A DNA stretch of 35,470 nucleotides, taken from contig JAMLIM010000039.1 of the NCBI GenBank assembly GCA_023954175.1, forward strand, positions 1-35,470. Reading direction: 5' to 3'. Below, in pieces: positions 19,992-28,977 of this stretch. Within the stretch, counting starts at the first letter, position 1, and each line of letters starts with the position of its first letter. Position numbers and translations under genes: made by a program. The notes beneath the pieces were generated by a model. That model searched no databases. It saw only the letters and a list, made by a program, of their open reading frames with translations, and was not told the origin of the DNA. This DNA is from Rhizobacter sp. Lineage in GTDB: Bacteria > Pseudomonadota > Gammaproteobacteria > Burkholderiales > Burkholderiaceae_C.

Positions 19992-22900
19992 ATGAACACC
20001 GGCGCCGGCGCGCGGGCTTGGCGCAATCCGGTCATCGTGCTGGGCGTCGCGCTCGCCTATGCGATCGTCGCCTGGCTCTCGCTGCGAATGTCCCAGCCGC
20101 CGAGCGAGGCATCGCCGCTGTACGCGCCGGCCGGACTCGCGCTGGCCTGTGCCCTGCGCTACGGATGGCGGGGCTTGGCGGGCGTCGCGCTCGGCGCGCT
20201 GGGGGTCGCTGGCGCCACGCTCGGCCTTCAACACAATGCCGATCCGGCCCTGCTGGCGATCGCGGTCGCCATCACCTGCGGCGCGACACTGCAGGCCGGC
20301 GTCGGGGCGGCGCTGGTGCGGCGCTTCCTGCCGGGTGCGTTGACGCTCGCCGAGCCGCGCGATGTCGCGCTTTTTCTGCTGCTCGGCGCGCCGATCGCTT
20401 CCCTGATCAGCGCCAGCGTCGCCGCGCTGTCGCTTGGCCTCGGCGGCATCGTGCCGCGCGATGCACTCGCCGCGAGCTGGTGGATCTGGTGGATCGGCGA
20501 CACCTTCGGCGTGCTGATCGGCGCGCCAATCGTGCTGACGCTGATCGGCCGGCCGCGCGCCGACTGGGCGCCGCGCCGCCTGACCCTCGGATTGCCGCTG
20601 ACCCTCGCGGCGGTGCTGTTGACGGTCGCCATCGTGCAGGTGAACCGCTGGAACGAGGAGCGCTCGCACGCGCTGTTCGACCGTGAGGCGGCACAGGCGT
20701 CGTCGATGCTGGCGGCGCGACTCGAGCAGCCGCTCGAGGCCTTGCAGGTGTTGCGCGGCGCGTTTGCGGTATCGAGCGCACCGGCGCCGCAGGCCCTGCG
20801 GCGCACGGCGCGCAGCTGGCTGACCGATGACGCCGCCATGCAGGCGGTCAACAGCAGCGTGTGGTCGCTCGGCTACGCCCAGTGGATCACGAACGCAGAA
20901 GCGCACGACGCGCCCTTGCAGGCCGAGGGCGGAACCGCCCCCCTCGCCATGGACGCGCCCGCGGCCGGCGCGACGTCGGCAGCGGGCACGGCCGACAAGA
21001 GCGCGCTCGTCGTGCAGCAGGTCGAGCCGGCCGCATCGCACGCGCCGCTGCGCGGGTTCGACCTGACGACGCTCGCGCCGCTGCGCGAGGCGATCGAGCG
21101 CACGCTGCGCACCGACGGACCGGCCGCGAGCGCGGGCTTCGCGCTCGCCGGCGGGCCTGCGAACGACGCCGCCGTGGCGCTGGTGCATGCGCTGTTCCGC
21201 AGCGAGCACCGCACCATGAACGAGCGGCTCGCCGACCGGGACGGCCTCGCCTTCGTGATCCTGCTGCCGCAGATCGTGCTCGAGCAGTTGCTCCCCTCGC
21301 TGCCGCCCTCGATCGAACTGTGTCTGATCGACACCGACCCGCTCGCCACGCGGCGCGTGCTGGCGGGGCGGCCCGACTGCATGGCGCTCGGCCCCGATGC
21401 GCTGCTGAAGGTGCGCAACCTGGACTACGGCGGCCGCAGCTGGGACATCCGCGCGAGCGCTTCGCACCAGGCGCTGCTGGCGGGCGGGCGTGACAGCGCG
21501 CTCGCCTTCACGCTCGTCGGGCTGCTCGCAACGGCGATGCTCGGCGCGCTGCTGCTGACCGTCACCGGGCGCACGCGCCGCATCGAAAACGCGGTGACGG
21601 CACGCACCGCAGAGCTCGAGCGCGAGATCCGCGAGCGCGCACACACCGAGTCCGCGCTGCGCGAAAGCGAGACGCGCTTTCGCAACATCTTCGACAACGC
21701 ACCGATCGGCGTGATCTACACCGATCTGGACGGCAACGTGCTGCAGACCAATCCGCGCTTCTGCGAGATGCTCGGCTACAGCGCGGAAGTGCTGGCGAAC
21801 ATGAACCTGCGCGACTTCGTCCATCCCGACGAATGGGCACTGGAGACCGAGCTCGCGCAAGGCCTGCTGCGCAACGGCCTGCCCTCGGCCAGCGCGCACC
21901 GGCGCTTCCTGTCGGCGAGCGGCGAAACGCTGTGGGTGCAGCGCTCGATCTCGCTGCTGCGTGACGCCGGCGGCACGCCGCAATGCCTGGTCGGCGTCGT
22001 CGAGGACATCACCGAACACCTGCTTCTGCAGGACGCCGAACGCGCGCGCGAGGTGGCCGAACAGTCCAACCGCGCGAAGAGCGAATTCCTCTCGCGCATG
22101 AGCCATGAACTGCGCACGCCGCTCAACGCGATGCTCGGTTTCGCGCAGCTGCTCGAGCTCGACCAGCGCCACCCGCTGGACGACGCGCAACGCCCCTGGG
22201 TGGCACAGATTCAGGGCGCCGGCTGGCACCTGCTGGAGATGATCAACGACGTGCTCGACCTTTCGCGCATCGAGGCCGGAACGATGCGCCTGCAGCCCGA
22301 GCCGCTCGCATTGCCGCCGCTGCTCGCAACGACGCGCGCGATGATCGAGGGCGACGCCGAACGCCGCGGCATCGTCGTCACCCAGCACGTCGACGACGAT
22401 GCCACGCGTGTGCTCGGCGACGCCACGCGCGTCAAGCAGATCCTCACCAATCTGCTCTCCAACGCGGTCAAGTACAACCACGACGGCGGTCGCATCCACG
22501 TGATGGCACGCACCCGCGGCGACGATCAGATCGAAATCAGCGTGACGGACACGGGCCTCGGGATGACGCCCGAGCAGGTCGAGAGCCTGTTCCAGCCGTT
22601 CAATCGCCTCGGCCGCGAGCACACGGTGCGCGAGGGCACCGGCATCGGCCTCGTCATCAGCCGGCGGCTGGCGGAACTGATGGGCGGCAGCCTTCGGGTG
22701 CGCAGCAGCGCGGGTGAAGGGTCATCCTTCATCCTCGTGCTGCCCCGGGTCGCGCCGTCCGACACGGTGCCTTCCGCGCTCGACGCGCCCTACACCACGT
22801 CCTCGGGCTACCACCGCCGCATCGTCCACTATGTCGAGGACAACGAGACGAATGTCGAGGTCATGCGCGGCATTCTTGCGCAACGCCGCCAGGTCAGGCT

Positions 22901-23201
22901 CGAAGTCTCGATGACGGGGCTGGATGCACTCGCGACCCTGCGCCAGCGCCGCCCGGACCTGATCCTGCTCGACATGCACCTGCCGGACATCGACGGCCTG
23001 GAACTGCTGCGCCACCTGAAGGCCGACCCCGAGCTGGCGGACATCCCGGTCGTCGTCGTTTCGGCCGACGCGATGCCGGCGCAGGTCGAGGCAGCGATCC
23101 AGGCCGGCGCCCTGCGTTACCTGACCAAACCGGTCAGCGTCGCGGCGCTGCTGGCCACGGTGGACGAACTGCTGGAGCGGGTGGCGACCCAGTTCGGCTG
23201 A
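19992..23201 (+). CDS. hybrid sensor histidine kinase: MASE1-CHASE-PAS-HisKA-HATPase_c-REC
   Basis: This 1069-residue inner-membrane sensor starts with several hydrophobic helices (residues about 10-210) of MASE1 type, with YAPAGLALACALRYGWRG. A CHASE-like extracytoplasmic domain follows (about 220-485: EQPLEALQVLRGAF, SLGYAQWI), then another helix near 505-525. A PAS/PAC domain begins RESETRFRNIFDNAPIGVIY at about 555-680. The HisKA phospho-acceptor is His705 in RMSHELRTPLN. HATPase boxes are NLLSNAVKYN, DTGLGM and GTGIGLVISRRLAELMGG. The receiver domain has EDNETN, phospho-acceptor Asp994 in LILLDMHLPD and the Lys of YLTKPV. There is no Hpt domain or DNA-binding output, so phosphate must pass to an unlinked partner. 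It lies 132 bases upstream of rpoH on the same strand; the ligand is unknown. Confidence 0.93.
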   Translation: MNTGAGARAWRNPVIVLGVALAYAIVAWLSLRMSQPPSEASPLYAPAGLALACALRYGWRGLAGVALGALGVAGATLGLQHNADPALLAIAVAITCGATLQAGVGAALVRRFLPGALTLAEPRDVALFLLLGAPIASLISASVAALSLGLGGIVPRDALAASWWIWWIGDTFGVLIGAPIVLTLIGRPRADWAPRRLTLGLPLTLAAVLLTVAIVQVNRWNEERSHALFDREAAQASSMLAARLEQPLEALQVLRGAFAVSSAPAPQALRRTARSWLTDDAAMQAVNSSVWSLGYAQWITNAEAHDAPLQAEGGTAPLAMDAPAAGATSAAGTADKSALVVQQVEPAASHAPLRGFDLTTLAPLREAIERTLRTDGPAASAGFALAGGPANDAAVALVHALFRSEHRTMNERLADRDGLAFVILLPQIVLEQLLPSLPPSIELCLIDTDPLATRRVLAGRPDCMALGPDALLKVRNLDYGGRSWDIRASASHQALLAGGRDSALAFTLVGLLATAMLGALLLTVTGRTRRIENAVTARTAELEREIRERAHTESALRESETRFRNIFDNAPIGVIYTDLDGNVLQTNPRFCEMLGYSAEVLANMNLRDFVHPDEWALETELAQGLLRNGLPSASAHRRFLSASGETLWVQRSISLLRDAGGTPQCLVGVVEDITEHLLLQDAERAREVAEQSNRAKSEFLSRMSHELRTPLNAMLGFAQLLELDQRHPLDDAQRPWVAQIQGAGWHLLEMINDVLDLSRIEAGTMRLQPEPLALPPLLATTRAMIEGDAERRGIVVTQHVDDDATRVLGDATRVKQILTNLLSNAVKYNHDGGRIHVMARTRGDDQIEISVTDTGLGMTPEQVESLFQPFNRLGREHTVREGTGIGLVISRRLAELMGGSLRVRSSAGEGSSFILVLPRVAPSDTVPSALDAPYTTSSGYHRRIVHYVEDNETNVEVMRGILAQRRQVRLEVSMTGLDALATLRQRRPDLILLDMHLPDIDGLELLRHLKADPELADIPVVVVSADAMPAQVEAAIQAGALRYLTKPVSVAALLATVDELLERVATQFG

Positions 23202-23231
23202 GGGCGGCCAAAGGCGGCCGAGGGCGGCTGC
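23202..23231 (+). repeat. three imperfect 10-base GGCGGCC repeats after the kinase stop
   Basis: Immediately after the kinase stop the sequence reads three near-identical decamers centred on GGCGGC. The third can fold with the following CGCCCCTC into a short GC hairpin. The nearest T-run is about 25 bases later, so this is at best a weak terminator. Confidence 0.4.
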
Positions 23232-23265
23232 GCCCCTCCCAACCCGGTCAACCCGGTGTTTTTCA

Positions 23266-23292
23266 TCAGCACTCTCGGTGGTCGAGTGCTAA
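23266..23292 (+). promoter_or_regulatory. CIRCE operator (HrcA binding site) upstream of rpoH
   Basis: The left arm TCAGCACTC (23266-23274) and right arm GAGTGCTAA (23284-23292) are separated by exactly 9 bases. The known CIRCE consensus is TTAGCACTC, nine bases, GAGTGCTAA, so 17 of 18 arm positions match; the only difference is C for T at position 2. CIRCE is bound by the repressor HrcA, classically in front of groESL or dnaK. Here it overlaps the apparent rpoH -10 box, as expected for repression. The hrcA gene is not in the window. Confidence 0.9.
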
Positions 23293-23295
23293 TAT
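23287..23295 (+). promoter_or_regulatory. extended -10 promoter element for rpoH
   Basis: TGC followed by TAATAT is a good extended -10 element (TG, one base, hexamer). Its first six bases lie inside the right arm of the CIRCE operator. No -35 hexamer is placed correctly, which extended -10 promoters can tolerate. Transcription would start near 23302, giving a leader of about 32 bases. Confidence 0.55.
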
Positions 23296-23333
23296 GGGGG
23301 AACGAATGGAGCTTCGAACACTCCAATCCCCCA
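23295..23333 (+). promoter_or_regulatory. inverted repeats in the rpoH leader next to the start codon
   Basis: TGGGGG (23295-23300) pairs with CCCCCA (23328-23333), and inside it TGGAG (23307-23311) pairs with CTCCA (23321-23325) around a 9-base loop. The outer 3' arm ends directly at the AUG. If transcription starts near 23302, only the inner stem is in the mRNA; an upstream promoter would include both. The only Shine-Dalgarno-like purine runs are inside these stems. This is a candidate translational control structure, unproven. Confidence 0.4.
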
Positions 23334-24272
23334 ATGAACGCTACCTTGCCAATGACTCTGCCCTCCTCCGCCATCGTCAAGCGCGACGCTTGGGCGCTGG
23401 TGCCGCCGCTCGGCAACCTGGACGCCTACATTTCGGCCGTGAACCGGGTGCCGTTGCTGACGCCCGAAGAAGAACTGCGCTTCGCGAAGCGCCTGCGCGA
23501 GCATGGCGACGTCGAAGCGGCGGGAAAGCTCGTCGTCTCGCACCTGCGGCTCGTCGTTTCGATCGCGCGCCAGTACCTCGGCTACGGCTTGCCGCACGGG
23601 GACCTGATCCAGGAAGGCAACGTCGGCCTGATGAAGGCGGTGCGCCGCTTCGACCCGGAACAGGGCGTCCGGCTCGTCAGCTACGCGATGCACTGGATCA
23701 AGGCCGAGATCCACGAGTACATCCTGAAGAACTGGCGCATGGTCAAGGTCGCGACGACCAAGGCGCAGCGCAAGCTCTTCTTCAACCTGCGCTCGATGAA
23801 GCAGAGCCTGAAGGAGGACGCGACCGACGTCGACGCCCACCGCGGCACGCTGACGCAGGGCGAGGTCGACACGATGGCGCGGCGCCTGAACGTCAAGCGC
23901 GAGGAAGTGCTGGAGATGGAGACGCGCATGTCGGGTGGCGACATCGCGCTCGAACCGCAGGTGGATGATGGCGAAGAGGGCTTTGCGCCGATCGCCTACC
24001 TGGCCGACGAAAGCACCGAGCCGACACGCGTGATCGAGGCCCACCGGCGCGATTGGCTCGCGACCGACGGCATCGCCCACGCACTCGACGCGCTGGACGA
24101 CCGCAGCCGCCGCATCGTCGAGGAGCGCTGGCTGAAGGTCAACGACGACACGACCGGGGGCATGACGCTGCACGAGCTGGCGACGGAGTACGGCGTCAGC
24201 GCCGAGCGGATCCGCCAGATCGAGGTCGCCGCGATGAAGAAGATGCGCAAGGCGCTGGCCGAGTCCGCCTGA
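23334..24272 (+). CDS. rpoH: RNA polymerase heat-shock sigma factor RpoH (sigma-32)
   Basis: This 312-residue sigma factor is slightly longer than the E. coli protein (284). Region 1.2/2.1 begins PLGNLDAYI. Region 2 includes DLIQEGNVGLMKAVRRFDP and RLVSYAMHWIKAEIHEYIL. The RpoH box QRKLFFNLR at residues 145-153 separates RpoH from other sigma factors. Region 4 has the helix-turn-helix TLHELATEYGVSAERIRQIE. It directs polymerase to chaperone and protease promoters after heat stress. ATG 23334 is chosen; ATG 23352 is possible and neither has a normally spaced ribosome site. Upstream lie a CIRCE operator and leader hairpins, and downstream converging cytochrome oxidase assembly genes. The position beside sco matches other Burkholderiales as I recall them. 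Confidence 0.97.
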   Translation: MNATLPMTLPSSAIVKRDAWALVPPLGNLDAYISAVNRVPLLTPEEELRFAKRLREHGDVEAAGKLVVSHLRLVVSIARQYLGYGLPHGDLIQEGNVGLMKAVRRFDPEQGVRLVSYAMHWIKAEIHEYILKNWRMVKVATTKAQRKLFFNLRSMKQSLKEDATDVDAHRGTLTQGEVDTMARRLNVKREEVLEMETRMSGGDIALEPQVDDGEEGFAPIAYLADESTEPTRVIEAHRRDWLATDGIAHALDALDDRSRRIVEERWLKVNDDTTGGMTLHELATEYGVSAERIRQIEVAAMKKMRKALAESA

Positions 24273-24409: not shown

Positions 24410-25039
24410 TCAGCCTTCGGCAAGCACCTGCTTCAGGTCGGCCTCCAGCTGTTCGGCCGGCATGCCGTAACGCTCGAACAGACGGATGCGGCCCTGGGCG
24501 TCGATCACGTAGGAGCCGGCGGTGTGGTCGACCGTGTAGCTGCCCGGCGTCTTCCCAGGCGACTTGGCGAAGAACACCTTGAACTCGCGCGCCGCTTCGG
24601 CTGTCTGCTCGGGCGAGCCCCGCAAGCCGACGAAGCTCGGGTCGAACGCCGCCAGGTAGGCCTTGAGCACCTCCGGCGTGTCGCGCTCCGGATCGACCGT
24701 GACGAAGATCGCCTGGATGCGATCGCCATCGGCGCCGAGCCCGCGTTTGATCAACGCCAGCTCGCCCATCGTCGTCGGGCAGACGTCGGGGCACTGCGTG
24801 TAGCCGAAGAAGACGACACTGACCTTGCCCTTGAAGTCCGCGAGCGTGCGCTCCTTGCCGTCGGCGTCCGGCAGCGACAGCTTGCGGCCGTAGTCGGCGC
24901 CGGTGATGTCGACGCCATGAAAGCTCGGCTTGCCCGGGCCCAGGCCGAGTTTGTCGCAGCCGGCCAGCGGCAAGGCCAGCAGCACCGGCAACAGCGCGCT
25001 CAACACGACGCCGCGGCGGGAAACGGATTGCGGCTTCAC
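24410..25039 (-). CDS. SCO1/SenC family copper chaperone for cytochrome oxidase (lipoprotein)
   Basis: The 209-residue protein has an N-terminal lipoprotein signal with lipobox LAGC, so Cys28 should be lipidated and the protein anchored on the periplasmic side. The thioredoxin-like domain has the copper site CPDVC (Cys83, Cys87) in [16 protein letters not shown] and the third ligand His172 in [14 protein letters not shown] proteins deliver Cu to the CuA site of subunit II. The start is GTG 25039, overlapping the stop of ctaB as GTGA; a much longer open frame upstream is the out-of-frame complement of neighbouring genes. Confidence 0.95.
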
Positions 25040-25950
25040 AGCAGCGGCCTCAGGTAGTGATCGAGCAGCAGCGCCGCGAACAGCAGCGCCAGGTAGAGGA
25101 TCGAAAAGCGGAACGTGCGCCGCGCCAGGGCATCGCTGTAGTCGCGCCACAGCACGAAGGCATAGGCGGTGAAGACGCCGCCGAGCCCGATCGCGGCAAC
25201 GAGGTAGATCACGCCGCTCATGCCGAACAGATAGGGCAGCAGCGTCGCGGCGAACAGCACCAGCGTGTACAGCAGCATCTGCAGCCGGGTGAACGCCGAG
25301 CCATGGGTGACGGGCAGCATCGGCAGGCCCGAGCGCCGATAGTCCTCGACGCGGTAGAGCGCAAGCGCCCAGAAGTGCGGCGGTGTCCACAAGAAGATGA
25401 TGAGGCACAGCATCAGCGCTTCGGGCCCCACGTCCCCGCGCATCGCGGCCCAGCCGAGCACCGGCGGCATCGCACCCGATGCGCCGCCGATCACGATGTT
25501 CTGCGGCGTCGCCGGCTTCAAGACGACGGTGTAGATGACGGCATAGCCGACGAAGGTCGCGAACGTCAGCCACATCGTCAGCAGGTTGACGAACAGGCCG
25601 AGCAACGCGCTGCCGAACGCGCACAGCACGACCGAGAAGGCAAGCGCCTGCGCATCCGTCAGCTGGCCCTTTGCGGTGGGCCGCCAGGCGGTGCGTGCCA
25701 TGCGGGCGTCGATGCGCTTCTCCACGAGGCAGTTGAACGCCGCGGCCGCAGCGGCGACGAGCCAGATGCCCACGCTGGCGGGCAGCACGAGCCGCCAGTC
25801 GGGCAGGCCCGGTTCGGCGAGCAGCATGCCGATCACCGCGCAGAACACGATGAGCTGGACCACGCGCGGCTTGGTCAGCGCGTAGTACTGACGCACGCGC
25901 GATGCCGCTGTAGCCCGCTGGGGATGCGATGGGGACAGTGCCTGCGTCAT
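25036..25950 (-). CDS. ctaB: protoheme IX farnesyltransferase (heme O synthase)
   Basis: This 304-residue UbiA-superfamily enzyme has about seven to nine membrane helices. The prenyl-diphosphate and Mg site is [19 protein letters not shown] (Asn73 and Asp81 among the key residues). The second Asp-rich loop lies around [16 protein letters not shown]. It joins farnesyl diphosphate to heme B to make heme O at the inner membrane, the substrate for the heme A synthase encoded just upstream. The N-terminal [17 protein letters not shown] is typical. ATG 25950 is 114 bases after the ctaA stop; the gene end overlaps sco by 4 bases. Confidence 0.97.
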
Positions 25951-26064
25951 CTGGAATCGATTCCGTGGCCGGCCGGGCCGTGCGAGCCCAGGCGCCCGAA
26001 GCGAGAACCTGGGGCGGCTGCGTACGTGAAGGGGATTGAATCGCGATGCATGGGCGGAGCCATT

Positions 26065-27237
26065 CTACGAAGCGGCGACCGACAGACGACCCGCATCGCG
26101 CGCCGCGGCAGTCTGGCGCGCCTGATGCGCCCTTGTCAGCAGCACGGTCATCAACACGACGATCATCGCCGCGCCGCCGGTATGCGCCACGGCTGCGACC
26201 AAGGGCCATCCGAGCACGACGTTCGACAATCCGCTCGCCAGTTGCCACAGGGCCACGCCACCGAACGCGAGCGCCCAGCGCCGCAGCGGGGGGACTTCAC
26301 CGCCCGCCCGCCAGAGGCGCCAGGCGAGCCAGGCGAGGCCCGCGAGCACGACATAGGCCATCAGCCGATGCATGTAGTGGATCGCAGTCAACGCCGCGAA
26401 CGGCAGCCAGCCGCCGTCCTTGCCTTCGCCGAGCGCGCGCCAGATCGTGAAGCCGTGATCGAAATCCATCAGCGGCCACCAGGCGCCTTGGCAGGTCGGA
26501 AAGTCCGTGCAGGCGAGCACGGCGTAGTTGGTGCTGACCCAGCCGCCGAGCGCGATCTGGATCACGCAAAGGGCGAACACCCCGAGCGCCGCGCCGTAAA
26601 GCCCGCCCGGCAGCGCCAAGGGCGCACGGCGATAGCCTTCGAGCTGTGCCGCGAGCAGCGCGAGCAGCCCGAGCCCGCCGAGCAGGTGCAGCGTCACGAT
26701 CGCGGGGTACAGCTTCATCGTCACCGTGAGCGCGCCGAAGGCACCCTGGACGGCCACCCACACGAGCGTGGCGGTCGCCCACCATGGCGAGACGCCACTG
26801 CCACCGTCACGCTTGCGGCGCCTCGCCTCGAACCAGCTCGCGATCGCGAGCACCGTGATCAGCACGCCGACGCCGGTCGCGAGATAGCGGTGGATCATCT
26901 CGACCCAGGCCTTGCCGTGCGTGACCGGGCCGCTGGGCATCGCGGTCTGCGCCGCGTGGATGTCGGCGCTGGCACCGAGCGGGCTTGCATTGCCGTAGCA
27001 ACCCGGCCAGTCAGGGCAACCGAGCCCGGAATCCGTGAGGCGCGTGAAGGCGCCGAACAGCACCAGATCGAAGGTCAGAAACAGCGTCAGCAGCGTCAAC
27101 GCGCGCAGCCGGCCGACGCTGCCCGCTTCGCGATTGCGCAGCCAGACCCACGCCAGCGGGCCGGCGGCGAGCGCGATGCCCATCAGCGCGACGCGCGCGA
27201 TCGGCGCCAGATCGTACAGAGGCTGCGCGCTGTCCAT
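26065..27237 (-). CDS. ctaA: heme A synthase, COX15/CtaA family
   Basis: The 390-residue inner-membrane protein has about eight helices in two pseudo-repeats. A cysteine pair lies in GCPDWPGC (Cys74, Cys80) and a second in ACTDFPTCQGAWWP, as in CtaA proteins with both loops. Heme-ligand histidines are suggested by MIHRYLATG, TLHLLGGLG, IHYMHRLMAY and VAHTGGAAM. It oxidises the methyl group of heme O to formyl, making heme A for the aa3 oxidase. It begins 3 bases after the SCO-like gene stop and precedes ctaB, so the heme pathway genes are in one unit. Confidence 0.95.
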   Translation of the reverse strand: MDSAQPLYDLAPIARVALMGIALAAGPLAWVWLRNREAGSVGRLRALTLLTLFLTFDLVLFGAFTRLTDSGLGCPDWPGCYGNASPLGASADIHAAQTAMPSGPVTHGKAWVEMIHRYLATGVGVLITVLAIASWFEARRRKRDGGSGVSPWWATATLVWVAVQGAFGALTVTMKLYPAIVTLHLLGGLGLLALLAAQLEGYRRAPLALPGGLYGAALGVFALCVIQIALGGWVSTNYAVLACTDFPTCQGAWWPLMDFDHGFTIWRALGEGKDGGWLPFAALTAIHYMHRLMAYVVLAGLAWLAWRLWRAGGEVPPLRRWALAFGGVALWQLASGLSNVVLGWPLVAAVAHTGGAAMIVVLMTVLLTRAHQARQTAAARDAGRLSVAAS

Positions 27238-27240
27238 GCG

Positions 27241-27963
27241 TCAACGGCCCGGCAGATCCCACGACGCCGAGGCGCGCAGCAGGCGCTCGATGTCGCGCTT
27301 GAGCTTTGGCGGGTCCGGATCGGCCGGTACGCGCATCATCCAGCGGCCCATCGGATCGACGATGTAGAGGTGCTGCTCGAGCGTGTGTCCGGCCGCCGGC
27401 GACAGCCAGCGTGCAAGCGCCTCGCGCGGCGCTCGAAGCGTCGTAACGGCAACGCCCGCCGTCGTCGCGGCGGTCACTTCGGGCCGTACCGGTGCAGCAT
27501 CGGTGACGAGCCAGACCTTGTCGACGCGATCGCGCTCCTTGCCGAGCGTCTCGCGCAGTTGGCGCTGCAGCACGAGCAGGCCCTCGCATCGCGCGTCGCA
27601 ATCCGCGCCCGCAACGACAACGAGCAGCCATTGCCCCTTGAGGGCCTCGGCCGACACCGCGCCGCCCTGCATGTCGGTGAGCGGCAGTTCGCCGGCCTCG
27701 GGCATGGGCAGCGGCGGCGAGATGAGCTCGCTGTAGTTCGCCCCGCCTTCGGGCCGCACGACATAGAAGGTGAAATACGAAGCGATGACGGGCGCCGCGC
27801 ACACGAGCAGCACGGCAAGCATCTTGATGCGCCCGCTGCGCGTGCGCGCCTGCTCGGGCAACACCGGCTCGGGGAGGCGATGCACGGTCAGCCCGACGCG
27901 GTCGAGCGCGTCCTCAGCGTGGGTCGCGGGCAAAGCGGGGGCGGATGAGTTGGTACCAGACAT
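27241..27963 (-). CDS. membrane-anchored SCO-like thioredoxin-fold protein of the oxidase assembly locus
   Basis: This 240-residue protein is usually left as hypothetical. It has one membrane helix at about residues 48-67 and then a periplasmic domain. That domain looks like a diverged SCO/thioredoxin fold: LPLTDMQGGAVSAEALKGQW resembles the strand before the active site, and CDARC (Cys122, Cys126) has the CxxxC spacing of SCO proteins. His198 in LEQHLYIVDPMGRWMMR sits where SCO has its third copper ligand. It may help load copper or reduce oxidase cysteines. ATG 27963 has AGGA 4 bases upstream, supporting a start 50 bases inside the SURF1 gene. It is followed 3 bases later by ctaA. Confidence 0.8.
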   Translation of the reverse strand: MSGTNSSAPALPATHAEDALDRVGLTVHRLPEPVLPEQARTRSGRIKMLAVLLVCAAPVIASYFTFYVVRPEGGANYSELISPPLPMPEAGELPLTDMQGGAVSAEALKGQWLLVVVAGADCDARCEGLLVLQRQLRETLGKERDRVDKVWLVTDAAPVRPEVTAATTAGVAVTTLRAPREALARWLSPAAGHTLEQHLYIVDPMGRWMMRVPADPDPPKLKRDIERLLRASASWDLPGR

Positions 27964-28642
27964 AAAGTCCTGCGATGAGGGCGCTCATGGCCCACCACTG
28001 GAAGGCGTAGCCGTAGTGGGTGTTGACGTTGAGCGCGGGGCGCGGCCAGTCACGCAACAGGCCGTCGGGCGTCGACGCGCCCTCCTGCTGCACAGAGACC
28101 GGCGCGAGTGCGACGCCGATTTCGCGCGCGTAGTGTTCAGGGTCGATATTTTGCCGGATCGGGCCGCTCGCGGCGGCTTCGAACTCATACAGCCGTGACG
28201 GCGGCGGGGCAATCCGCCCTTCGAGACGGACAAGGCCCTCGGGCGTCGCAAGCGCCGGCACCCGCGTGCGATCTTCGAAGCTGCGCGGCGCCCAGCCGCG
28301 CTGCACCAGCACCGCACCGCCTTGCCACTGAAACGGCGTGACGACGATGAAGCCGGTGCGCGAATTCAACGGCCGGTTGTCGAGGAACACGGTGCGCTCG
28401 GCAAGCCAGCGGCCTTCGAGCCGAACGCGCCGAAATTGCAGGCTGTCGTCACCCGGGCGCAGCAAATCGAGTTCATGCGCGCCGACCGGCGGCATCGCGC
28501 TGCGCGCGTCGAGGGCGGCCTGCAGCGCGGTCTTCTGCGCCGCGCGGTCCCACTGCCAGTAGCCAAGCCCGGCGCCGATACCCGTGCCGATCACGGCCGC
28601 GAACAGCAGGGTCGCGTGCGTGGCCGCACGCCTCAGATCCAC
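27914..28642 (-). CDS. SURF1-family cytochrome oxidase assembly protein
   Basis: From GTG 28642 the product is 242 residues, the normal size. It has an N-terminal helix (ATLLFAAVIGTGIGAGLGYWQW) and a C-terminal helix (WWAMSALIAGLYVWYQLIRP) flanking a periplasmic domain. Family marks are GYWQWDRAAQKTAL, RLEGRWLAERTVFLDNR, FIVVTPFQW, VQRGWAP and HYGYAFQWW. SURF1 assists heme A insertion into subunit I. The frame is open to 28936, but that part runs over the divergent DUF2909 gene, so GTG 28642 is the best available start. It leaves 33 bases to the divergent start codon. The C-terminal 50 bases overlap the next gene. Confidence 0.9.
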   Translation of the reverse strand: MDLRRAATHATLLFAAVIGTGIGAGLGYWQWDRAAQKTALQAALDARSAMPPVGAHELDLLRPGDDSLQFRRVRLEGRWLAERTVFLDNRPLNSRTGFIVVTPFQWQGGAVLVQRGWAPRSFEDRTRVPALATPEGLVRLEGRIAPPPSRLYEFEAAASGPIRQNIDPEHYAREIGVALAPVSVQQEGASTPDGLLRDWPRPALNVNTHYGYAFQWWAMSALIAGLYVWYQLIRPRFARDPR

Positions 28643-28661
28643 GCGGCGCGGGCCTCGAGCG

Positions 28662-28667
28662 GATAAT
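28662..28667 (+). promoter_or_regulatory. possible -10 box (GATAAT) for the DUF2909 gene
   Basis: GATAAT is followed by 8 bases and then the ATG at 28676, so a transcript from it would be leaderless or nearly so. No -35 hexamer is evident, and the whole divergent region toward SURF1 is only 33 bases. Weak support. Confidence 0.3.
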
Positions 28668-28675
28668 CGCTGCGC

Positions 28676-28897
28676 ATGAAATTCGCGATCGGCATCGTTC
28701 TCGTCCTGATCCTGTCGGCGCTCGCCGTGGCCGGCGTTGCGATGCTGCGTGGCGGACGAGAAGGCGAGCCCAAGCGCCACACCATGATGCACGCACTCGC
28801 CTGGCGCATCGGCCTGTCGGTGCTGCTCTTCGTCTGCCTGCTGGTCGCCTACTGGTTCGGGTGGATCCAGCCGACTGGCCTGCCGCTGAATCGCTAG
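28676..28897 (+). CDS. DUF2909 twin-transmembrane small protein
   Basis: The 73-residue protein has two hydrophobic helices (about residues 4-24 and 44-65) joined by a charged loop (RGGREGEPKRHTMMHALAWR). This matches the small proteins called DUF2909 or twin transmembrane proteins that sit beside cytochrome oxidase genes in Burkholderiales. It is an inner-membrane protein, perhaps an oxidase accessory, but no function is established to my knowledge. It is divergent from SURF1 and has no ribosome site before its ATG. Confidence 0.85.
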   Translation: MKFAIGIVLVLILSALAVAGVAMLRGGREGEPKRHTMMHALAWRIGLSVLLFVCLLVAYWFGWIQPTGLPLNR

Positions 28898-28977
28898 CCA
28901 GTCACAGGACAACTCGTCGCCTGCCCGGAAAGGCATTGTAGGGCTCGACCCGGCGAAACTCGGGTAGCCTCAAAAGC

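What the first reader, a model, noticed from the sequence alone, without database searches (positions are those of the whole stretch)
23266..23295. Near-perfect CIRCE operator overlapping the promoter of rpoH
The arms TCAGCACTC and GAGTGCTAA with a 9-base spacer differ from the CIRCE consensus at one base. They overlap an extended -10 (TGC TAATAT) 39 bases before the rpoH start codon. HrcA normally represses groESL or dnaK. Here it would control the heat-shock sigma factor itself, nesting one heat-shock regulator under another: free HrcA after chaperone recovery would shut off sigma-32. I have a vague memory that comparative studies of betaproteobacterial heat-shock regulons considered such sites, so novelty is uncertain, but the site itself is clear.
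Basis: partly seen in the sequence, partly recalled or inferred. Interest (0 to 1): 0.7.

Follow-up and report, generated by a model that had tools for sequence, protein, structure and literature searches.

The report
HrcA operator inside heat-shock sigma promoter
The gene for the heat-shock master switch (sigma-32) carries, right on its promoter, the landing site of a second heat-shock regulator, HrcA; the arrangement recurs in related bacteria and was absent in the sampled relatives that have lost HrcA, so two heat-shock systems thought of as parallel appear to be wired in series.

Summary
A CIRCE repeat with one mismatch lies at 23266-23292 on the rpoH promoter; no match occurred in 100 shuffles of the window. 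The genome has hrcA and two CIRCE with up to 3 mismatches: at rpoH and at groES.

The site is not private. In an even sample of 120 genomes of the order, 106 of 106 rpoH loci read from hrcA-positive genomes carry it, 0 of 12 from hrcA-negative ones. The HrcA regulon here looks like mainly groESL plus rpoH.

In most loci the operator is interleaved with a sigma-E-type promoter (GGAACTT-N16/17-TCNNA), its -10 in the CIRCE, and is followed by a conserved TAANAT -10; groES sites largely lack both. In part of the window's own clade the sigma-E-like element lies just 3' of the CIRCE, with an ATG 5-7 nt after its -10; the window has no Shine-Dalgarno: a predicted leaderless rpoH message.

CIRCE before rpoH was already predicted in Geobacter sulfurreducens (PMC545781), so the kind is known; reach, co-loss with hrcA and sigma-E interleaving seem new. 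HrcA binding and transcription starts are untested.

The parts
23266..23292 (+). CIRCE operator (TCAGCACTC-N9-GAGTGCTAA), one mismatch to consensus
   Evidence: conserved
23287..23295 (+). extended -10 (TGC TAATAT), partly made of the CIRCE right arm
   Evidence: the T three bases after the right arm is kept in 183 of 184 rpoH sites and NAT in 163 of 184, against NAT in 1 of 21 groES sites; no full sigma-70 promoter in the scan
23299..23305 (+). sigma-E-like -35 (GGAACGA)
   Evidence: 6-7 bases after the CIRCE in 10 loci, the window included, all within one 23-row clade
23322..23326 (+). sigma-E-like -10 (TCCAA), 16 bases after the -35
23334..24272 (+). rpoH, sigma-32 (start ATG 23334; alternative ATG 23352), no Shine-Dalgarno at either start
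   Evidence: TIGR02392 399 bits; Pfam sigma-70 regions 1.2, 2 and 4; anti-SD duplex +0.4 kcal/mol at both

Best explanation
The repeat is a true HrcA operator laid over the promoters of rpoH. HrcA (inferred to be kept active by free GroEL, as recalled from Bacillus) blocks transcription of rpoH in unstressed cells and again after recovery. Misfolded protein draws GroEL away, HrcA lets go, and rpoH is transcribed from a vegetative extended -10 promoter and, where present, from a sigma-E promoter. Sigma-32 then activates groESL, whose own sigma-32-like promoter is followed by the only other CIRCE found in the genome. HrcA thus represses both sigma-32 and a sigma-32 target: a coherent feed-forward loop closed by the chaperonin. 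In most of the order the sigma-E -10 lies in the CIRCE (end of the left arm plus spacer), so HrcA and sigma-E polymerase could hardly both sit there. In the window the sigma-E-like promoter lies just 3' of the CIRCE and would start the message at or near the start codon. Shown: site, hrcA, rpoE, conservation, co-loss, positions. Inferred: binding, repression, promoter use, the GroEL link, which sigma factor reads which element.
For: CIRCE with one mismatch, 0 in 100 shuffles (composition estimate). hrcA over its cut-off. Two CIRCE with up to 3 mismatches in the genome. 78 of 80 close loci have CIRCE before rpoH, 63 perfect. In the order sample 106 of 106 hrcA-positive loci have it (44 perfect, 38 with one mismatch, 20 with two, 2 with three, 2 with four), against 0 of 12 hrcA-negative loci; the 12 hrcA-negative genomes have no CIRCE with up to 2 mismatches anywhere. 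Two relics (L177, L168) of the 12 keep sigma-E elements while the CIRCE has decayed. In 30 of 32 close loci with the -35 at -12, TCNNA stands exactly 16 bases on, in spacer letters that the CIRCE does not fix. Sigma-E elements score in 80 of 106 and 49 of 78 loci against 2.7% and 1.7% with shuffled flanks and spacer. Spacer TNA in 57 of 106 rpoH sites against 0 of 21 groES sites; NAT after the right arm in 86 of 106 and 77 of 78 against 1 of 21. rpoE over its cut-off, followed by a frame that looks like RseA (by eye). The 21 groES sites read are preceded by CTTGAAA-like and CCCTAT-like elements, loosely so in L256 and L258 (by eye).
Against: No binding or transcript data. One named relative, Allofranklinella (L078), has hrcA but no CIRCE at rpoH. 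Controls are not silent: the pattern read backwards matched once in each of 7 of 120 genomes, the reversed upstream sequence had a best match of 4 mismatches in 1 of 118 loci, and a GGAACTT-like 7-mer stands before 2 of 21 groES sites. The window's site is not a perfect CIRCE and has no good sigma-70 -35. The window's sigma-E-like -35 (GGAACGA) is weaker than the GGAACTT common elsewhere; 23 of 106 order loci and 25 of 79 close loci show no such element at the threshold used. Ten of 12 hrcA-negative loci show no sigma-E element either. Genomes are related, so raw counts overstate independence.
Confidence: 0.8

Rival explanations
1. HrcA binds, but control of sigma-32 is in practice post-transcriptional as in Escherichia coli (translation, DnaK/GroEL and protease feedback), so the operator only trims basal rpoH mRNA.
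For: In E. coli most heat control of sigma-32 is after transcription (recalled). Allofranklinella has lost the site while keeping hrcA.
Against: Conservation in 44 of 48 families with loci in the order sample is hard to square with a trivial effect. No Rfam match and no unusual RNA fold at the 5' end of rpoH, so no sign of an mRNA thermometer there, though these tests would miss a weak one.
Confidence: 0.3
2. The inverted repeat works as RNA or DNA structure (leader hairpin, terminator of the upstream gene) and not as an HrcA site.
For: It is an inverted repeat with 9-base arms that pair but for one position, and lies between two genes.
Against: The letters themselves are conserved (63 of 80 perfect) and are absent where hrcA is absent. 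No terminator-like site found. The predicted starts lie at or downstream of the repeat.
Confidence: 0.04
3. In the window the sigma-E-like element downstream of the CIRCE is a chance match, and rpoH is transcribed only from the extended -10 on the CIRCE.
For: GGAAC-N18-TCNNA occurs once elsewhere in the window; the -35 here is 5 of 7; 13 of the 23 rows of the clade do not have the element there (8 'none', 5 with it upstream), among them Methylibium (L009, L010).
Against: GGAAC (GCAAC in L005) stands 6 or 7 bases after the CIRCE in 10 loci, all in that one clade, with TC at N16 or N17 in 10 of 10, TCNNA at N16 in 8 of 10, and an in-frame ATG 5-7 nt after the -10 in 9 of 10.
Confidence: 0.35
4. 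The downstream sigma-E-like promoter escapes HrcA: a repressor bound 5' of it does not block it, so in this clade only the vegetative transcript is HrcA-controlled.
For: The operator ends 6 bases before the -35 of the downstream element.
Against: A bound repressor that close would normally hinder polymerase (inference).
Confidence: 0.3

Closest known systems
CIRCE at rpoH in Geobacter sulfurreducens (Rodionov et al. 2004, PMC545781, Table 8; passages read)
   Same: A CIRCE at -51 from the rpoH start in a genome with CIRCE sites at groESL and at hrcA's operon.
   Different: There also a CIRCE at hrcA-grpE-dnaK-dnaJ; in Table 8 rpoH is listed for that one genome; the passages read mention no sigma-E promoter.
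HrcA/CIRCE regulons of beta-, gamma- and epsilon-proteobacteria (Permina and Gelfand 2003; not held, seen only as a reference in PMC545781)
   Same: Covers the group to which the window belongs; may well list rpoH sites.
   Different: Could not be read, so its overlap with this finding is unknown.
RpoE control of a heat-inducible rpoH promoter in Burkholderia pseudomallei (Vanaporn et al. 2008, not held; stated in review PMC5994319, passages read), and the sigma-E promoter P3 of E. coli rpoH (recalled)
   Same: Sigma-E drives rpoH.
   Different: The passages read do not mention a CIRCE at that promoter.
groESL CIRCE of the same genomes
   Same: Same operator, presumably the same repressor.
   Different: Sits just after a sigma-32-like promoter (by eye); spacer TNA in 0 of 21 and following NAT in 1 of 21, against 57 of 106 and 86 of 106 at rpoH.

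Membership tests
HrcA/CIRCE operator | TTAGCACTC-N9-GAGTGCTAA within few mismatches | tested here: met
   1 mismatch of 18
HrcA/CIRCE operator | hrcA in the same genome | tested here: met
   TIGR00331 300 bits, cut-off 197
HrcA/CIRCE operator | conserved in relatives with hrcA and absent without it | tested here: met
   106 of 106 against 0 of 12 loci; exception outside that sample: L078
HrcA/CIRCE operator | HrcA binds it and represses | not testable with these tools
   needs protein and mutant
rpoH (sigma-32) | match to TIGR02392 over cut-off | tested here: met
   399 bits against 323
sigma-E-dependent promoter (23299-23326) | GGAACTT, 16-17 bases, TCNNA (consensus recalled) | tested here: met
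   GGAACGA-N16-TCCAA; -35 5 of 7
sigma-E-dependent promoter (23299-23326) | RpoE in the genome | tested here: met
   TIGR02939 262 bits, over its cut-off of 236
sigma-E-dependent promoter (23299-23326) | transcript start 5-8 bases after the -10, dependent on rpoE | not testable with these tools
   needs 5'-end mapping
sigma-70 promoter on the CIRCE | -35 and -10 hexamers at 16-18 bases | tested here: not met
   no full promoter in the scan; only an extended -10

The most novel reading that the evidence does not exclude
Through most of the order the rpoH promoter is a competition gate: the -10 of a sigma-E promoter lies in the HrcA operator, so envelope stress (sigma-E) and chaperonin load (HrcA) are weighed on one stretch of about 45 bases that sets sigma-32; HrcA's regulon is just groESL and its activator. 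In part of the window's clade the sigma-E promoter slid past the operator and fires a leaderless rpoH mRNA.
Probability: 0.5. Interest if true: 0.7.

Novelty: new variant of a known kind. Interest (0 to 1): 0.57.

Why it matters
HrcA and sigma-32 are usually described as parallel heat-shock systems. Here they appear to be in series across an order, and sigma-E seems to join at the same bases. If true, chaperonin load directly sets transcription of sigma-32, a layer that E. coli cannot show (PMC545781 says that the HrcA/CIRCE regulon is not present in E. coli). The finding gives a compact testable construct and natural losses (L177, L168, L078) as experiments already done by evolution.

Tried and rejected
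RNA thermometer in the rpoH leader: no Rfam match at E up to 1 in 22900-23700 and a fold of 23300-23480 no better than shuffles, z +1.18. Intrinsic terminator and full sigma-70 promoter in 23150-23400: none found. The first protein tree held four wrong-frame rows (L018, L030, L059, L065) picked by my longest-frame rule; I rebuilt it with the frames of the protein match, and only that tree is used. The class 'down' in the order sample (4 loci) has no consistent -10 and I treat it as noise, L017 in the close set likewise.

Rows dropped or patched: L071 holds only 21 bases before the match and cannot be judged. L097 and L149 scored as misses only because the protein match began late; the wider rescan finds their sites. 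G033 and G048 gave no rpoH and are not in the locus counts. The window's own locus is not among the 106; G050 gives two loci, so 118 loci come from 117 genomes. The 80 loci are the best 80 of 584 relatives (a capped list, there are more), hence close kin. The match list was cut, so CIRCE per genome comes from its genome table, tallied by eye. For one search I copied 37 non-rpoH spacers from that cut list, leaving out at least two weak ones (in G119 and G120), without knowing their strand, so both were counted; the cleaner control is (20 fetched plus the own one, all beside groES). The lists were cut too, so counts outside the order are lower bounds.

Papers: 10 searches; I saw their listings and starts of abstracts, and passages of four papers (PMC545781, PMC5994319, PMC3135505, PMC3989490). 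Only PMC545781 among these passages speaks of CIRCE at rpoH; PMC3989490 speaks of CIRCE at groESL. Most subscription journals are not held, so this does not show that nothing is in print.

Full report
What is there. At 23266-23292 the window reads TCAGCACTC-TCGGTGGTC-GAGTGCTAA, a CIRCE with one mismatch; it is the only match with up to three mismatches in the window and none occurred in 100 shuffles. By base composition about 0.0005 sites with up to one mismatch, and 0.33 with up to three, are expected in 3.9 Mb. The right arm runs into TAATAT, making TGC-TAATAT. The gene that follows is rpoH (TIGR02392, 399 bits against a cut-off of 323), with ATG at 23334 and another in-frame ATG at 23352.

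The rest of the genome. hrcA is present (300 bits, cut-off 197). With up to three mismatches the genome (148 contigs, 94.7% complete) has two CIRCE: this one and one on another contig, also with one mismatch, 116 bases before the start of groES. rpoE is present over its cut-off and is followed by a frame that looks like rseA (by eye). So the pieces that the circuit needs are there.

Conservation near the window. Of 80 rpoH loci fetched from named genomes (the best 80 of 584 in a capped list; Roseateles, Rhizobacter, Aquincola, Methylibium, Comamonas, Variovorax and others), 78 have a CIRCE before rpoH: 63 perfect, 13 with one mismatch, 2 with two; the same stretches read backwards have best matches of 6-9 mismatches. 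The two misses are L071, which holds only 21 bases upstream, and L078 (Allofranklinella), a true absence although its genome has hrcA.

Conservation across the order and co-loss with hrcA. In 120 genomes drawn evenly from the order (50 families), 118 had rpoH, 107 had a CIRCE with up to two mismatches (the backward control pattern matched once in each of 7 of the 120) and 108 had hrcA. The 12 genomes without hrcA have no CIRCE at that cut-off. Of the 108 with hrcA, 107 have at least one; the exception, G033, also gave no rpoH. I read 118 rpoH upstream regions from 117 genomes (30 loci, 88; the window itself not counted): 106 of 106 loci from hrcA-positive genomes have a CIRCE (44 perfect, 38 with one mismatch, 20 with two, 2 with three, 2 with four), and 0 of 12 from hrcA-negative genomes, whose best match has 5-8 mismatches. 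Read backwards, 1 of the 118 regions reaches 4 mismatches and 1 reaches 5. The site is thus in 44 of 48 families with loci. Three families (f4, f24, f34) hold genomes with and without hrcA, and the match holds within each. A family outside the order but in the class, f56, adds a fourth contrast: two genomes with hrcA have a variant palindrome (CAGTC...GACTG in one, CAGTC...GATTG in the other, 2 mismatches) at rpoH, one without hrcA has at best a partly decayed copy by eye (7 mismatches). Genomes are not independent, so the Fisher value (1e-16) only describes. By eye from the table, 93 of 120 genomes have exactly two CIRCE, 13 none, 8 one, 6 three. The 20 non-rpoH sites that I fetched, and the one of the own genome, stand before groES (21 of 21). 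The HrcA regulon of this order thus looks like mainly groESL and rpoH; other targets with weaker sites are not excluded.

Upstream of the left arm many loci read GGAACTT, and TCNNA follows 16 or 17 bases later, inside the CIRCE. Scored together, this occurs in 80 of 106 order loci and 49 of 78 close loci (a few of these downstream), against 2.7% and 1.7% when flanks and spacer are shuffled. The -35 mostly takes a few places (-17, -16, -14 or -12 from the CIRCE), and the -10 moves with it. Scanned without fixing the spacing, 79 of 106 order loci have an upstream -35, with TCNNA at 16 bases in 51 and at 17 in 17; the next best spacing, 14, has 6. In most of the order the -10 is the last TC of the left arm plus TNA of the spacer; TNA opens the spacer in 57 of 106 rpoH sites, against 1 of 37 other CIRCE copied and 0 of 21 groES sites. 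The strictest test is the 32 close loci with the -35 at -12, where the CIRCE supplies no letter of the -10: TCNNA stands at exactly 16 bases in 30 of 32, with 2 counts at 17 and 1 at 18. A GGAACTT-like 7-mer also stands before 2 of 21 groES sites. The layout is that of a sigma-E promoter (consensus recalled). The review PMC5994319 states that RpoE controls a heat-inducible rpoH promoter in a Burkholderia (passages read). At the threshold used, 23 of 106 order loci and 25 of 79 close loci show no such element.

A second promoter. After the right arm comes NAT: 86 of 106 and 77 of 78 rpoH sites, with the T kept in 183 of 184, but 1 of 21 groES sites. With the TAA of the arm this gives TAANAT, a -10 hexamer with TG one base before it. 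groES sites instead follow CTTGAAA-like and CCCTAT-like elements, a sigma-32-like promoter (by eye; loose in L256 and L258; in the own genome the CIRCE starts 9 bases after it).

The window's own clade. A quick tree of 79 RpoH proteins puts the window in a 23-row clade (support 97) with Roseateles, Rhizobacter, Aquincola, Methylibium and Aquabacterium. In 10 of these 23 rows (window, L004-L008, L011, L013, L014, L065; GCAAC in L005), and in none of the other 56, a GGAAC element lies 6 or 7 bases after the CIRCE; 8 of the 23 have no element and 5 have it upstream, and the tree needs 4 changes of the label, so the move happened, or was lost, more than once or the tree is unsure. A TC -10 follows at 16 or 17 bases in 10 of 10 (TCNNA at 16 in 8), and an in-frame ATG lies 5-7 bases after it in 9 of 10. 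A sigma-E polymerase would start at or next to that ATG (inference). The window has no Shine-Dalgarno pairing at either ATG (+0.4 kcal/mol); L008, L011 and L014 are weak too (-2.2 to -3.5 at best), but the other six of the ten reach -5 kcal/mol or better at some candidate start, as do 43 of 43 close loci of the upstream type. A leaderless rpoH message in the window's genome is therefore a prediction, not a finding.

How it most likely works. Inferred: GroEL-charged HrcA (recalled from Bacillus) sits on the CIRCE and shuts both promoters. When GroEL is drawn off, HrcA leaves, sigma-32 is made, and it fires groESL, from which HrcA has left as well. HrcA thus represses both an activator and its target, a coherent feed-forward loop, and GroEL closes the feedback. 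Sigma-E lets envelope stress raise sigma-32, but only as far as HrcA allows. When hrcA is lost the sigma-E elements can stay while the CIRCE decays: L177 and L168 show this among the 12 hrcA-negative loci; ten show no such element. In L078 GGAACTT remains without the CIRCE.

What is known. A CIRCE at -51 of rpoH in Geobacter sulfurreducens was published as a prediction in 2004 (PMC545781, passages read). A 2003 survey of beta-, gamma- and epsilon-proteobacteria could not be read and may already list such sites. In the listings of ten searches and the passages of four papers I saw nothing on a CIRCE joined to a sigma-E promoter at rpoH. I therefore call it a new variant of a known kind. Outside the order, of 26 rpoH loci of the phylum sample that I read, 4 have a CIRCE or variant within 2 mismatches (L225, L227, L228, L237, all of the same class), and four genomes of family f65, of another class, have one 51-70 bases before the rpoH match (G132, G143, G166, G221; coordinates; hrcA present). 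So the arrangement is recurrent.

Check against the calls. 

Noticed in passing
L225, L227 and L217 (family f56): A variant palindrome TTAGCAGTC-N9-GACTGCTAA (L227; GATTGCTAA in L225) before rpoH in two genomes with hrcA, with only a partly decayed copy (by eye) in a third without hrcA; a possible shift of HrcA specificity.
   Followed up: partly
G132, G143, G166, G221 (family f65): CIRCE 51-70 bases before the rpoH match in genomes of another class, with hrcA present.
   Followed up: partly
L163 and L170 (genome G050): Two rpoH genes in one genome, each with its own CIRCE and GGAACTT element.
   Followed up: no
L078, 1883-2342: The stretch before rpoH of Allofranklinella has GGAACTT but no CIRCE although hrcA is present.
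   Followed up: partly
window 19992-23201: The gene before rpoH is a MASE1-CHASE-PAS hybrid histidine kinase with a receiver domain; in some other loci of the order (L149, L189, L097) the frame before rpoH looks like the end of ftsX (by eye, recalled).
   Followed up: no
window 24410-26248 and 27914-28936 (minus strand): SCO1/SenC and SURF1 proteins of cytochrome oxidase assembly lie downstream of rpoH on the other strand; the SCO1 domain fills only the last part of a 612-aa frame.
   Followed up: no
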